From positions 1 to 36,020 of the forward strand of contig DULK01000076.1 of NCBI GenBank assembly GCA_012840385.1: DNA of 36,020 nt. Reading direction: 5' to 3'. Under the pieces are notes generated by a model. It was not told the origin of the DNA, ran no database searches, and saw nothing but the letters and a program-made list of their open reading frames with translations. Position 1 is the stretch's first letter. The number at the start of each line of letters is the position of its first letter. The DNA is from Syntrophomonadaceae bacterium. GTDB lineage: Bacteria > Bacillota > DSM-12270 > Thermacetogeniales > Thermacetogeniaceae. The position numbers and the translations under genes were made by a program. Positions 8,210 through 29,890 of this stretch are shown here, piece by piece.

Positions 8210-9469
8210 CTAGCTTGTGTCAAAGAGATACTGCGCCAGGCTCCTGTCCCTGATATACTCCAGGGCATTGCGCATCTTTTCCGCTATCTCTCTTGCGCTG
8301 AAACCACTATCAGCATAGCTGCGCCTGTTCCTGTACAGAAACAGCCAGAAGAGGTTAACCGCCAAAAGCATGAACCATAGAATTACCTGAGAGGCGACTT
8401 CCTGATGGATGTAGCAGTGTTCCATGTTCCAGTTGCCCTTGAGTTCATGAAAGCCCGTGTTTTCTATCTCCCACCTCCGGTGGATGATCTCCCGGATTAG
8501 TTCCGGTGTTGCTTCCTGTTTGCTCATGGTGGTAGCTACCAGGATCTCCCGCTTCTGTATCGCTTCTTGACGTTTGCCGCCTACTATTGCATAGCCGTGC
8601 TTGATCTCGATGAACTTGACGACTCTTAAGGGTTTTTCTACTCCGTCCCAGGTTTCGAAATGTTCTTCATCCCAGGCGGAGATGTCTGTATGAGTGGTGG
8701 AGGTCTTGTCCTCACGCCATGTCTTGGCTGGTACCTGATGGCTGAATACCCCTTCCGCATCCCTGACTATGTGCATGCGGTCATCTTTGAGACGGACTAC
8801 TACATGGATCTTTTTGCTAAGCAAATAATTGATGAAAGGGGCCTTGGCAAAGCCGGCGTCAACCACCACTACGTCGGCAAAGTGCTTGTAGACCTTATAG
8901 AGCCAGTCAATCAGCCTCTTGGCAGCAGTGGTCTCGCCTTCCCCCGGCAAAATCGGCTCATGACCTAAGATGAGCGGCGGTTTGCCGCCCACCACCTGGC
9001 AGGTGACGACTTTGTGTTCGTAGGTGACCGTCCCGTCTTGGTGGTGCACCTCATGGCAGAGAGGACAGCAGCGGCTCCGGGTAGAAAAAAGGCCGGTGCC
9101 GTCGATGGCCGCTACACGATAATATCGGATTGACGGTAGCATCTTGCTGCGGCGTGCTTTGTTGATTACTGCCGCAAACAGATTTTTGACCGTGGCCAGC
9201 TCCATCCCAATCGAGCTGTGACGGATAGTATCCGCCGAGGGCGGCCTCTGTTTCCTGGGCAGGAGCTTTTGAAAATTCTCTTTCGCTCTGCGCTCAAGTT
9301 CCTCCAGACTCTGCACCTGCAGGATAAAACCAATTAAAAGCGTTACCCAGATAGTGCCCGGTTCTATCTCGGGATCTTTTCTTTCATCTTTTGCCCATTT
9401 GGTCCAGCCCTCAGGCAGGAAAACTTTATGCATGTATCGAAGAATATCTCTAAGCCACCGTTTCGCCAT
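8210..9469 (-). mobile_element. DDE transposase of an IS4-like insertion sequence
   Basis: A 419-aa transposase that appears intact. The DDE residues are visible in context: D in VAAIDGTGLFST, D in VVVVDAGFAKAPF, and E in RRWEIENTGFHELK, the last being the YREK-type signature of IS4-like enzymes. A Cys/His cluster (RCCPLCHEVHH) follows the first Asp. The C-terminal RDRSLAQYLFDTS is complete. AGGAGGTG precedes ATG 9469. No clear terminal inverted repeats or target duplication were found by eye in 8115-8209 or 9482-9600, so the element limits are not set. It sits alone between the mazF operon and a gene-free stretch. Confidence 0.85.
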
Positions 9470-9481
9470 CGGTGGTGACAC

Positions 9482-24122: not shown

Positions 24123-25283
24123 TTAACGTTGGGCTTTAATTGTTTTAACTAATTTGATAACATCATTGACGTTTTGGACAACGTTATACTGGTCAAGACC
24201 ATCCCCGTTTTGATCAAAGTTATATATACCTTCAGCCCCTTGGAAGCCTCTAATATTCAGTAAAGCCTGGCGAATGCTCTCCGGTTTCAGATCGGGAGCC
24301 TTTTTCATAGCTTCGGCAAATACATATACGGCGTCATATGTCCAGGATGAATAAAAGTCAGGGTCCTTCCCGAATTTTGCCTTGTATGCATCTGCAAATT
24401 TTTTGGCTTTGTCATTCGCATCAGGGTGGTAATCTGCTACAGCATATGTCCCGTACAGAGCTTCCCCTGCTAATTGACGAGCGGGAGTTGCCGTGACGGA
24501 CGCAGATCCAATCCAGTTGATCTTTAATCCTTGTTGCTTAATTTGTTTGGCTAATATACCAACATCAGGTGAGAAGGTCATATAGGTAATCATGCCAGTA
24601 GCACCTGACTTTTTGAGTGCATTAATGACAGCAGTGAAGTCTTTTTCATCGTTGTTATAGCCCAGATCGAGAACTGGAGTGACACCTAATTTTTTCAACG
24701 CGGCTACTGCCAAATCTCTGCCTCCGTTGCCAAAAGCGTCAGTGGAATGAACTATCGCCACTTTTTTTTGTTTGAGGTCATTGACCATAAAACTTGCCAT
24801 AGCTTGAGCACTCATTCCATCGTGTGGGCGGAAGCGGAACAACCATTGGCAACCGCTGTGGGTCAACCCGTAATTGGTACCTCCGGTTGCCACCGGAATT
24901 TTAGCATCGTTAATCGTCGGAAGCATCGCCGCTATTTGAGTTGATGGGCTGGGGCCAATAATTACTGCAATGTCCTTATCCTCTAAAAGCTTATGAAAAG
25001 CCTGGACAACACCCACATTGCTGCTTTGTCCATCTTCTTGGACCAAAATTAGCTTACGGCCATTGATACCTCCGGCAGCATTAATCTCTTCAACTGCCAA
25101 TATAGCTCCGTTTTTCTCTTCTCCACCTGCCTCTACCGCCGATCCCGTCATATGAACGATATGCCCAATCTTAATTGGAGCAGTAGCTTTATCCCCACTA
25201 GATTTACTGGTCTTACCACAACCGGTAATAAATAGTGTGAGAACCATCACAGCAGCAACCAACAAAGCTAAACGTTTATTCAT
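24123..25283 (-). CDS. livK: LivK-like substrate-binding lipoprotein
   Basis: A 386-aa periplasmic-binding-fold type I protein that delivers substrate to the LivHMGF importer. The signal peptide is MNKRLALLVAAVMVLTLFIT with the lipobox ITGC (Cys22), then a linker of Ser, Lys and Gly. Core marks: IKIGHIVHMTGSAVEAGGEE, NGAILAVEEINAAGGINGRK, IIGPSPSTQIAAMLPTINDA and VATGGTNYGLTHSGCQWLFR. The binding-site residues SPST and the Tyr/Phe pattern resemble LivJ-like proteins, but the ligand cannot be read from sequence. GGGAGG lies upstream of ATG 25283. As the first gene of the operon, after a long structured leader, it should be highly expressed. Confidence 0.92.
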   Translation of the reverse strand: MNKRLALLVAAVMVLTLFITGCGKTSKSSGDKATAPIKIGHIVHMTGSAVEAGGEEKNGAILAVEEINAAGGINGRKLILVQEDGQSSNVGVVQAFHKLLEDKDIAVIIGPSPSTQIAAMLPTINDAKIPVATGGTNYGLTHSGCQWLFRFRPHDGMSAQAMASFMVNDLKQKKVAIVHSTDAFGNGGRDLAVAALKKLGVTPVLDLGYNNDEKDFTAVINALKKSGATGMITYMTFSPDVGILAKQIKQQGLKINWIGSASVTATPARQLAGEALYGTYAVADYHPDANDKAKKFADAYKAKFGKDPDFYSSWTYDAVYVFAEAMKKAPDLKPESIRQALLNIRGFQGAEGIYNFDQNGDGLDQYNVVQNVNDVIKLVKTIKAQR

Positions 25284-25352
25284 TAATTAGCAACCTCCCT
25301 TTTATTCTTTAATTAGACCTTCATGCCGCTCGTATGGCACCATCAGGAGAAT

Positions 25353-25578
25353 GAAAATAGTGTTTATCCTTGCAGACGCAGCAACCTTACAGAGGCTGTT
25401 ACCTCGCCCCCGACGAGAAGCAGCTAACGGCAGCCGAATCAAAACAAGAAGTTGAGCAGGCAACTATGCGCTACGGAGGGCATTATAGGAGTTGATCGGC
25501 TGCCGTCTGCGACGAGTCTTAGAGCGAGTTCAACCGGAGTTCCGGAGCGAGCGCAAGGATAAGCCGGAACACATTTTC
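25353..25578 (-). repeat. Fold-back structured element in the livK leader (novel RNA or MITE)
   Basis: About 226 bases with nested complementary arms. P1: TTATCCTTGC (25364-25373) with GCAAGGATAA (25553-25562), 10 of 10. P2: GCAGACG (25372-25378) with CGTCTGC (25504-25510). P3: CGGCAGCCGAATCAA (25428-25442) with TTGATCGGCTGCCG (25492-25505), 14 pairs and one bulged A. Outer arms GAAAAT...GTGT and AACAC..ATTTTC extend it. Inside are small hairpins (CTCG/CGAG 403-417; CCGG-AGTT-CCGG 534-545). P2 and P3 share bases at 504-505, so they may be alternative. It ends about 70 bases before the livK ATG. No known riboswitch consensus (T-box, B12, TPP, SAM, lysine, glycine) was seen. It could equally be a small non-autonomous transposon. 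Confidence 0.6.
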
Positions 25579-26470
25579 ATGGTAGTTTAATGAATAATAT
25601 AGGTCACATTGATATTGATAATGACAACAGTTCGAATAGGTGCCCCCCTTTCTTAAAAATCAATTTAATACTGATGTCATTCTGACTAGTTATTTTATGC
25701 TCCGATACCCCCCCTTTTTTTTGGCCCAAGTATGACCACCACACAGATTTTGAATCATTTACTCTTAAAATTATAAAACTTAAGATACTTAGACCATTAT
25801 TTAATTTAAAAAATTGTCAAATATACTCTACTCAGAACCAACTTCTAAAGTATTTGGAATATATGTAATACGGGCTTGAACTGGATCTTCTAGCCACAAA
25901 CATCGCTGGGCTGTTCAATGGCAGCGTTATTAAGCAAGTGGATGCCGCTAAAGTTTTTCTCTTTCAAAATCTCTTTTTGTCAAGATATACAACTGGTATA
26001 CCAGATAACCGACATTTTCTCTTTATATTTTTTGACCACTTATTCAACTCGCCTTCATGCTTTGCATTGAGGCACCGTTAATTATTTGGAAACCAGTTTG
26101 TATTTAATTAAGAACTTCCTTTACGGTTAGCGAACTGACAGATATCCCTTTCATTTTGAGCATTTTAAGCTATTTACAGCCCCACGATGGATGTTCTAGA
26201 CTAACGGCCAGAATTTGGAGATGTAGTATGCGTGTGGATGTGATGGATGGGTGGCAAATCTTTTAATCTTTCAATGCCATGCGTTTGAATCTGCGTTTTC
26301 ATTCTTAGAAGGTGGTAGGTCCATTCCCATGCGTTTACATGTAGCTGATTACCATGCTTCCGCTAACTCCAGAACACTCAAACGATGTTGAGCGAGCTTC
26401 ATGACAGGTCCTTTGGTTGTTACTTTGCTCTTCTTCTGTTAGACAAGAAGTTTTTAGCTATACAGACTAC
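25579..26470 (-). other. Gene-free stretch with decayed transposase-like sequence
   Basis: No gene is supported over about 0.9 kb. On the minus strand 26150-26440 reads QTHGIERLKDLPPIHHIHTH and then SLEHPSWGCK and KMKGISVSSLTVKEVL, which recalls the helix-turn-helix region of IS481-type transposases (GLEGLKD..PHxTP...HPSWGxxRLS...LKxxGxxVSxxTVxxIL). Stops and shifts break it. A candidate operator lies at 25987-26004. Confidence 0.45.
25987..26004. promoter_or_regulatory. Candidate GntR/FCD operator
   Basis: ATACAACTGGTATACCAG contains the perfect 12-bp palindrome CTGGTATACCAG, the TGGTATACCA type bound by FCD-class GntR regulators. Sixteen of 17 bases match a second site at 27147-27163 just upstream of the gntR gene. 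It falls inside transposase-like remnant sequence, so function is unproven. If used, it would be about 700 bases upstream of livK. Confidence 0.45.
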
Positions 26471-27449: not shown

Positions 27450-28298
27450 TTATTTGAATTCTTCAAACATTTTTTCAAATTCTTCTTTCGGTTCCTGTAT
27501 ATGATACACATACTCATCAGTGGGAAAGGCTCCACTTTTAACATCACGGATATATTCTCTGAACGCATTAATCGTTATCTCTGCCAGATTTGCATACTTC
27601 TTGACAAACTTCGGTGTAAAGGCCTGAAATAAACCTAACATGTCACCGCAGATGAGCAACTGTCCATCGCAGGGACCCCCTCCAATACTGTATACAGGTA
27701 TCTCCAGCTTTTTAGCAATAAAGCCGGTAACTTCAGGAGGCACCGCTTCAATCAAAAGCATTTGAGCGCCTGCTTCCTGAACGGCCAGAGCATCTTTGAT
27801 CAGATTACGGGCGCTGTTTACATCCCTACCTTGAGCCTTGAATCCACCCAACTGACCGGTACTCTGGGGGGTAAGACCGATATGCCCCATAACCATGATC
27901 CCCGCGTCCGTGATGGCTTTTATGCGGCTCGCTACTCTCATCCCACCTTCCAGTTTAATGCAATCCACTTCTGCTTCTTTAATAAACCTTCCGGCATTGG
28001 CGACCGCGTCTTCGTCCGACTTCTGGTAAGACATAAACGGCATATCCCCGATTACAAAAGTATTGGGTGCTCCCCGCCGCACGGCCTGGCAATGAGAGAT
28101 GCAGTCGTCCATCGTAACCGGGTTGGTCCCGGAGTATCCGAGAACCACCATTCCCAATGAATCTCCCACCAGGATCATGTCCATACCGGCCTGCTCTGCA
28201 AAAGAAGCCATAGGATAATCGTAAGCCGTGACCCAGGCCACCTGCTCACCCGCTTTTTTCATCCTCATAAAATCAACAATCGTTTTTTTCTTCGCCAT
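27450..28298 (-). CDS. PanB-like ketopantoate hydroxymethyltransferase family enzyme (copy 1)
   Basis: A 282-aa TIM-barrel protein of the ketopantoate hydroxymethyltransferase family (2-oxoacid + methylene-THF <-> hydroxymethyl-2-oxoacid + THF). The metal and catalytic residues are kept: D46 in VGDSLG, D85 in IGDMPFMSY, K115 and E117 in IKLEGG, E184 in LLIEAVP. The usual TDGQxLVxHD region becomes CDGQLLICGD, which loses the His. The C-terminus is longer than in E. coli PanB. GGAGGAG precedes the ATG. There is no panC, panD or panE around, and a second, diverged copy lies two genes away, so a role in pantothenate synthesis is unlikely. It may run in the reverse, C1-releasing direction on another 2-oxoacid. 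Confidence 0.85.
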   Translation of the reverse strand: MAKKKTIVDFMRMKKAGEQVAWVTAYDYPMASFAEQAGMDMILVGDSLGMVVLGYSGTNPVTMDDCISHCQAVRRGAPNTFVIGDMPFMSYQKSDEDAVANAGRFIKEAEVDCIKLEGGMRVASRIKAITDAGIMVMGHIGLTPQSTGQLGGFKAQGRDVNSARNLIKDALAVQEAGAQMLLIEAVPPEVTGFIAKKLEIPVYSIGGGPCDGQLLICGDMLGLFQAFTPKFVKKYANLAEITINAFREYIRDVKSGAFPTDEYVYHIQEPKEEFEKMFEEFK

Positions 28299-29047: not shown

Positions 29048-29890
29048 TTAGTTGCAACAAGTGAGCTTCTTTAAAACATCCTCGTCTATACTGAAGCCGT
29101 GCTTATCCTCCGGGTATACTCCTTTATCGATCTCGGCACACCATGTATTGAAAACCTCGGTCATCTGCCTGCCCATCTGGGCATATTGTTTAACGAACTT
29201 GGGCACAAACTTATCGAAAATACCCAGCAGATCGTAGGCGTTCAGATTCTGCCCTGTGGTATAAGGCCCGGCACCACAACTGATGGTGGCCATCTTCACT
29301 TTTTCATCGATCAGTTTCGCCAACAGGGACGGTATGCATTCCAGGACGATGGCAAAGGCTCCCGCTTCATCCAGAGCTATTGCTTCGTTCAGCAGTCGCT
29401 GCGCTGCCTCCGCATTTTTGCCCTGAACCTTAAAACCGCCCATCATCGCCGCGGTCTGCGGAGTAAGACCGATATGTGCGATTACCGGAATCCCCGCATC
29501 CACCACTGCCCGCACTGTATCTACCACTTTCATACCGCCCTCAATCTTGACGCAGTCTGCTCCGGCTTTAAGGATCAACCCGGCATTCCTGATGGCTTCT
29601 TCCCTGCTCACCTGGTATGACAGGAACGGCATGTCCCCTACGACAAACGTGTTTGGTGCTCCCCTCCGCACCGCCTTCACATGGTAGAGCATATCTTCCA
29701 GGTTGACCGGAATGGTTCCATCATGTCCCTGGATAATCATCCCCAGGGAATCTCCTACCAAGATCGCCTGAGCCTCTGAGCGATCAACCGCCTGCGCCAT
29801 CGGGTAATCATAGACGGTAATCATCTTAAATTTCTTTCCCGTCCGTTTCATCTCCAACAAATCAGGGATCGTCATCTTAACTTTTTCCAT
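29048..29890 (-). CDS. PanB-like ketopantoate hydroxymethyltransferase family enzyme (copy 2)
   Basis: A 280-aa paralogue of the protein encoded at 27450, clearly diverged from it. D47 (VGDSLGM), D86 (VGDMPFLSY), K115/E117 (VKIEGG) and E184 (VLECIP) are kept, so the metal site and catalytic base are intact. The TDGQ loop is changed to TTGQNLNAYD, with Asp to Thr and His to Tyr at its ends. The two copies thus differ from PanB and from each other in the part that should touch the 2-oxoacid. AAGGAGG precedes ATG 29890. They may form a heteromer or act on two different intermediates. Confidence 0.85.
   Translation of the reverse strand: MEKVKMTIPDLLEMKRTGKKFKMITVYDYPMAQAVDRSEAQAILVGDSLGMIIQGHDGTIPVNLEDMLYHVKAVRRGAPNTFVVGDMPFLSYQVSREEAIRNAGLILKAGADCVKIEGGMKVVDTVRAVVDAGIPVIAHIGLTPQTAAMMGGFKVQGKNAEAAQRLLNEAIALDEAGAFAIVLECIPSLLAKLIDEKVKMATISCGAGPYTTGQNLNAYDLLGIFDKFVPKFVKQYAQMGRQMTEVFNTWCAEIDKGVYPEDKHGFSIDEDVLKKLTCCN

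What the first reader, a model, noticed from the sequence alone, without database searches (positions are those of the whole stretch)
25353..25578. Nested fold-back element in the livK leader: candidate novel structured RNA or MITE
Three nested complementary arms (10, 7 and 14 pairs), the last two partly sharing bases and so possibly alternative, plus small internal hairpins, lie about 70 bases before livK. No known riboswitch consensus is visible. A metabolite-sensing leader for a hydroxyacid uptake operon is plausible, as is a small transposable element.
Basis: partly seen in the sequence, partly recalled or inferred. Interest (0 to 1): 0.68.

Follow-up and report, generated by a model that had tools for sequence, protein, structure and literature searches.

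The report
Scattered copy of TwoAYGGAY RNA
The fold-back next to livK is one of about 80 scattered copies, in this bacterium, of a poorly understood folded RNA (TwoAYGGAY) wrapped in inverted repeats; it is not a private switch for the transport genes, and it probably relates to the RNA-binding regulator CsrA.

Summary
The fold-back is real (window 25315-25585), but it is not a livK riboswitch. It is one member of a dispersed, intergenic repeat family: 79 copies of its core in this genome, 32 in Thermacetogenium phaeum, and some in 12 of the 20 genomes held of its class. The copies lie in either orientation to genes. The roughly 170-nt core has a strongly covarying RNA structure. Distant relatives and several sister copies score above the Rfam gathering cut-off for TwoAYGGAY (RF01731), an orphan RNA; the window copy itself is too decayed to do so. 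The RNA sense strand is probably the + strand, opposite to livK. Both hairpin loops carry the CsrA-type GGA motif (ANGGAN in the second, with N free to vary). TwoAYGGAY presence goes with a csrA gene (34 of 35 genomes, against 179 of 264 without the RNA). This supports a published but untested guess that the RNA sequesters CsrA. The apparent novelty is that TwoAYGGAY occurs as high-copy fold-back repeats here and, with different arms, in two other Firmicutes. The mobilising enzyme is unknown; no long target duplication was found in this family. CsrA binding and expression are inferred, not shown.

The parts
25315..25585 (+). whole fold-back element: X-type wrapper plus TwoAYGGAY-like core
   Evidence: boundaries AGACC... 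/ ...GGYAG shared by sister copies
25325..25338 (+). hairpin of the left wrapper (GCC...GGC here; GCCGCC/GGCGGC in most copies)
   Evidence: alignment of copies; the wrapper module also occurs without the core
25351..25358 (+). outer arm ATGAAAAT, pairs with 25573-25580
   Evidence: inverted repeat I13
25573..25580 (+). outer arm ATTTTCAT
25364..25373 (+). P1 5' arm TTATCCTTGC
   Evidence: compensatory changes in copies; 95% paired across copies
25553..25562 (+). P1 3' arm GCAAGGATAA
25380..25549 (+). core homologous to TwoAYGGAY RNA (RF01731)
   Evidence: model R1 built from 36 copies; R1 relatives and sister copies exceed the RF01731 gathering score
25380..25400 (+). P2 hairpin, with G-U pairs that are fixed in the family
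   Evidence: pair table
25427..25437 (+). P4 5' arm, pairs with 25496-25506
   Evidence: 5 of 11 pairs with two-sided changes
25496..25506 (+). P4 3' arm
25443..25453 (+). P5 hairpin, first AYGGAY/GGA loop; here decayed to AAGAA
   Evidence: loop GGA 92/97/100% conserved in the family, lost in the window copy
25469..25481 (+). P7 hairpin, second AYGGAY/GGA loop (here ACGGAG)
   Evidence: A-N-G-G-A 100/44/94/100/97% conserved
25534..25545 (+). P8 hairpin CCGGAGTTCCGG
   Evidence: 3 of 4 pairs with two-sided changes
24123..25283 (-). livK-like periplasmic binding protein gene, read on the strand opposite to the RNA
   Evidence: Pfam Peripla_BP_6, E = 2.4e-64

Best explanation
The element is one partly decayed copy of a dispersed, intergenic fold-back repeat whose cargo is a TwoAYGGAY RNA, probably read from the window's + strand, away from livK. 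Shown here: many copies, a conserved RNA structure, homology to RF01731, either orientation to genes, and a csrA gene in the genome. Inferred: at least some copies are transcribed, and the two GGA hairpin loops bind CsrA, so that the pool of copies titrates CsrA as CsrB-type RNAs do in Proteobacteria. Also inferred: the copies spread as non-autonomous elements, perhaps through a Y1 (HUH) transposase acting on hairpin ends. The window copy has lost one of its two GGA loops and is probably inert or weak, so any effect on livK would be incidental. My separate estimates are about 0.93 that the core is TwoAYGGAY and about 0.45 for the CsrA role.
For: 45 DNA matches in its own genome and 79 core copies by covariance model. 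20 of 51 pairs have two-sided changes against 7.9 +/- 1.7 in shuffles, and 60 such cells against 18. RF01731 gathering score is 43: L207 57.3, L206 55.5, L016 54.4, L213 52.5, L055 48.7, L017 48.4, L060 47.1, L061 46.2, L052 45.9. G-U outnumbers A-C 130:22 in well-paired columns, and 43:22 without the fixed G-U pairs, which points to the + strand as RNA. 80 of 81 copies lie outside long ORFs, with neighbouring-gene orientation mixed 15/18/13/10. Loops keep GGA, and the second keeps ANGGA while N varies. csrA is present in G000. Over 299 genomes of the phylum, 34 of 35 TwoAYGGAY genomes have csrA against 179 of 264 others, Fisher p = 5e-5; by family p about 0.005. The CsrA hypothesis was made earlier from the Rfam alignment (PMC4333381), and the discoverers scored the RNA as probably real and probably not cis-regulatory (PMC2864571).
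Against: The window copy itself does not match RF01731 at all and lacks GGA in P5. No expression data were available. Random orientation means no shared promoter arrangement. G-U excess is modest once the fixed pairs are set aside. The csrA association is confounded by relatedness and genome size. GGA count per copy is only slightly above dinucleotide shuffles. Some copies have P5 replaced by another fold-back, so not every copy is constrained.
Confidence: 0.6

Rival explanations
1. It is only a selfish fold-back DNA element (MITE/REP type). The hairpins serve transposition as single-stranded DNA, and the RNA-like core is a passenger with no present function.
For: High copy number, both orientations, sharp ends (left Y|AGACC, right GGYAG|), nested modules and tandem units. 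A single-copy Y1_Tnp gene is present in G000.
Against: The core keeps compensated helices and near-invariant GGA loops across families and beyond. G-U exceeds A-C on one strand. The same RNA is wrapped in unrelated arms in other Firmicutes, so the core and not the arms is what is kept. The Y1_Tnp gene is not flanked by the modules.
Confidence: 0.3
2. It is a cis-regulatory leader (riboswitch-like) of livK or of genes beside each copy; Rfam files TwoAYGGAY as Cis-reg.
For: It lies 32 bases upstream of the livK start codon. Rfam gives the type as Cis-reg.
Against: Sense strand probably opposite to livK; no orientation preference over 81 copies. No liv, glc or gntR relatives near other copies except one generic ABC ATPase and one GntR. 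Relatives sit between purN and purH, or beside deoC and a molybdate riboswitch (gene names read from the ORFs). The discoverers marked it as not cis-regulatory.
Confidence: 0.03
3. The RNA acts in the mobility of the element itself, as guide or scaffold RNAs do in IS110 or IS605 families.
For: A structured RNA of similar size sits inside a mobile repeat; copies tend to insert beside hairpins.
Against: IS110 is absent from G000 and G001, which have the most copies. No transposase gene was seen inside the element ends examined. The csrA link would be unexplained.
Confidence: 0.07

Closest known systems
TwoAYGGAY RNA (Rfam RF01731)
   Same: Two hairpins with AYGGAY-type loops side by side inside a closing helix; sister copies and relatives pass the gathering score; Firmicutes hosts.
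   Different: Here it is a divergent lineage in about 80 dispersed copies, wrapped in a fold-back module; the window copy has lost one loop and scores below threshold.
CsrB/RsmZ-type CsrA-sequestering RNAs
   Same: GGA in hairpin loops; host has csrA; proposed for TwoAYGGAY in PMC4333381.
   Different: Only two conserved loops per copy, many loci instead of one to three, no binding data, Firmicutes and not Gammaproteobacteria.
MITEs and REP/BIME repeats
   Same: Short, intergenic, multi-copy, hairpin ends, no coding capacity.
   Different: Carries a conserved structured RNA; no long target duplication found; no parent transposase identified.

Membership tests
TwoAYGGAY RNA (RF01731) | covariance-model score at or above gathering (43 bits) | tested here: met
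   Met by sister copies in G000 and T. phaeum (48.7, 47.1, 46.2, 45.9 bits in L055, L060, L061, L052) and by family members L016 and L017; NOT met by the window copy itself
TwoAYGGAY RNA (RF01731) | two hairpins with AYGGAY loops | tested here: met
   family consensus P5 ACAGGAUGU / CAUGGAUG and P7 ANGGAN; in the window copy P7 is ACGGAG and P5 has lost GGA
TwoAYGGAY RNA (RF01731) | two hairpins enclosed by a covarying closing helix | tested here: met
   P3/P4 with two-sided changes, 20 of 51 pairs in all
CsrA-sequestering RNA | A(N)GGA in hairpin loops | tested here: met
CsrA-sequestering RNA | host encodes CsrA | tested here: met
   G000 C104:21960-22112; 34 of 35 TwoAYGGAY genomes
CsrA-sequestering RNA | binds CsrA and antagonises it | not testable with these tools
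   needs binding and genetic assays
MITE / transposon-derived repeat | many dispersed copies without coding capacity | tested here: met
MITE / transposon-derived repeat | target-site duplication | tested here: not met
   direct repeats between the flanks of this family's copies are with one exception (L008, which is a neighbouring module) no clearer than in shuffles; a 2-3 bp duplication cannot be excluded. In the unrelated genome G135, 6 of 8 copies lie between duplicated hairpins
MITE / transposon-derived repeat | ends shared with an autonomous element carrying a transposase | tested here: inconclusive
   no transposase gene found between element ends; Y1_Tnp gene present but not flanked by the modules
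livK riboswitch | conserved position upstream of and sense to functionally related genes | tested here: not met

The most novel reading that the evidence does not exclude
TwoAYGGAY is a mobile CsrA-binding RNA. It spreads through Firmicutes genomes as a fold-back element that prefers hairpin or terminator sites, and its copy number (up to about 80) tunes how much free CsrA the cell has.
Probability: 0.22. Interest if true: 0.8.

Novelty: new variant of a known kind. Interest (0 to 1): 0.5.

Why it matters
TwoAYGGAY was described in 2010 and no paper found here gives it a tested function. A genome with about 80 copies, loops in which only the non-GGA position is free, and co-occurrence with csrA make the proposed CsrA link directly testable in a cultured organism (T. 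phaeum, 32 copies). If the copies are expressed, this would be a global regulator titrated by a dispersed repeat, a way for mobile elements to reset a regulatory network. It also warns that Rfam's cis-regulatory label for this family is doubtful.

Tried and rejected
Riboswitch for liv/glc genes: rejected on strand, orientation and context. Rfam hit in the window: none at gathering; the only hit at E<=5 was a snoRNA at E = 1.9. Group II intron or reverse-transcriptase mobilisation: RT genes are few and absent in two genomes with copies. IS110/bridge RNA: absent in the richest genomes. RAYT flanked by the repeat, as for classical REPs: not found. Empty site by orthologous livK region in sister genomes: that region is not conserved at DNA level, so no empty site was obtained. 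A first G-U/A-C count on a misaligned matrix gave no asymmetry outside P2; the re-aligned count gives 43:22, so this line is only moderate.

Full report
Observation. The 277-nt stretch folds better than shuffled sequence on both strands (z about -4.0 and -4.6). Comparison with sister copies sets the element at 25315-25585, 32 bases before the livK start (livK is 24123-25283 on the - strand). The outer 10-bp and inner 11-bp arms pair in 95% and 92% of cells across copies. The 7-bp arm that was thought to be an alternative pairing does so in only 56%.

Copies. A DNA search of the genome returned 45 matches. A covariance model of the core (R1) found 79 in this genome, 69 and 37 in two sister genomes, 32 in genome G005, and some in 12 of the 20 genomes held of the class. 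G005 is a single contig of 2,939,057 bp, the size published for Thermacetogenium phaeum (PMC3551663). Of 81 copies examined in this and related genomes, 80 lie outside long ORFs, and the flanking genes are oriented +/+ 15, -/- 18, -/+ 13, +/- 10 with respect to the RNA. Some copies are at the same place in sister genomes (L002/L010, L004/L021, L049/L099), so at least part of the repeat is inherited in place.

Anatomy. A core of about 170 nt is closed by P1 (TTATCCTTGC/GCAAGGATAA, or an unrelated pair GGCGAAATTTAAG/TTTAAATTTCGCC in some copies) and wrapped in module X (hairpin GCCGCC/GGCGGC, then a stem GAAAA.../...TTTTC). X also occurs without the core (42 matches to X in all). Other small fold-backs (CCAGCACTCACC...GGTGAGTGCTGG; CCCCGCACTCAA...TTGAGTGCGGGG) replace the tips of P2 or P5 in some copies. 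Ends are sharp: left flank Y then AGACC, right end GGYAG, with no right-flank preference and no long target duplication.

RNA structure. RNAalifold on 49 copies gave 47 pairs, 22 with two-sided changes. On a trimmed set of 36, 20 of 51 pairs show two-sided changes against 7.9 +/- 1.7 when partners are shuffled, and 4-6 when the structure is slid. G-U exceeds A-C 130:22 in well-paired columns (43:22 where G-U is not the usual pair). A first count on a less well aligned matrix did not show this outside P2, so the strand assignment rests mainly on the fixed G-U pairs in P2, and I hold it with moderate confidence. RF01731 itself matches the same strand of every sister copy. The sense strand is thus the window's + strand, and a livK transcript would carry the complement.

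Identity. R1 also hit three of the sampled genomes outside the family (G036, G142, G166). cmscan of those loci gave RF01731 TwoAYGGAY at 57.3, 55.5 and 52.5 bits (L207, L206, L213; gathering 43). Sister copies and other members of the family also pass (L016 54.4, L055 48.7, L017 48.4, L060 47.1, L061 46.2, L052 45.9). The window copy does not, and its first loop reads AAGAA in place of AGGAU. So the family is TwoAYGGAY, and this copy is a decayed member.

How it may work. I found no tested function for TwoAYGGAY. Its discoverers rated it probably an RNA, probably not cis-regulatory (PMC2864571). A later paper noticed CsrA-binding motifs in its two loops and proposed that it sequesters CsrA (PMC4333381). 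Here the second loop is A (100%), N (44%), G (94%), G (100%), A (97%), and the first is G, G, A at 92, 97 and 100%: what varies is what a CsrA site lets vary. Over 299 genomes of the phylum, RF01731 was found in 35, of which 34 also have csrA; 179 of the other 264 have it (Fisher p = 5e-5). Counting families, all 19 with the RNA have csrA against 93 of about 120 (p about 0.005; the total of 120 is read from the family numbering). Relatedness is not corrected for, and the RNA search used stricter filters, so this is support, not proof. Binding and expression are untested.

Elsewhere. In two other Firmicutes families the same RNA is again a multi-copy fold-back, with quite different arms: G135, 8 copies mostly 91-97% alike, and G258, 8 copies with outer arms of about 40-80 nt. 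In G135, 6 of 8 copies lie between two nearly identical copies of a terminator-like hairpin, for example ACCCGCAGCAACTAACTGCGGGTTTTTTG, as if the target hairpin had been duplicated. I found no paper that describes TwoAYGGAY as a dispersed repeat, but the library is limited to open-licence papers and the supplement of the 2010 paper could not be read.

Mobility. No transposase gene was seen inside the element ends. G000 has one Y1_Tnp (RAYT-like, 260 aa) gene without the modules beside it. IS110 is absent. A Y1 enzyme would suit the absence of duplications and the conserved left-flank bases, but this is inference.

Verdict. The finding is real, but not what it seemed: a decayed copy of a known orphan RNA, dispersed as a fold-back repeat. 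The interest lies in the family, not in livK.

Noticed in passing
G135 loci L228-L235: TwoAYGGAY copies in an unrelated Firmicute lie between duplicated terminator-like hairpins (14-29 bp, 6 of 8 copies), suggesting insertion at terminators with a large duplication.
   Followed up: partly
L046 140-560, L045 1220-1560, L148 3560-4330: Other fold-back modules (TIR CCAGCACTCACC and CCCCGCACTCAA) replace hairpin tips P2 or P5 of the core; one in L045 is flanked by GCGAC on both sides.
   Followed up: partly
L148 3560-4330 (sister genome, contig CADDZD010000076.1): Two whole units stand head to tail (354-bp period), joined as ...CAGGGCAG|ACGATCACGCC...
   Followed up: no
G006 loci L028-L043: In this genome the same ends enclose different, longer middles (arms CCAGGCAAGC/GCTTGCCTGG), with 400-500-nt nested fold-backs.
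   Followed up: partly
window 27450-28298 and 29048-29890: Two PanB-like (ketopantoate hydroxymethyltransferase) ORFs close together with IlvD-like and LarA/DUF2088-like ORFs and a sigma-54 activator; an unusual hydroxy-acid gene cluster beside livKHMGF and glcDF (names from reading the sequences, not searched).
   Followed up: no
window 8210-9481: DDE_Tnp_1 transposase gene (E = 1.4e-16); not tested as source of the repeat.
   Followed up: no
L213 2990-3330 (genome G166): A TwoAYGGAY fold-back sits between purN and purH with two competing outer 3' arms for the same 5' arm.
   Followed up: no
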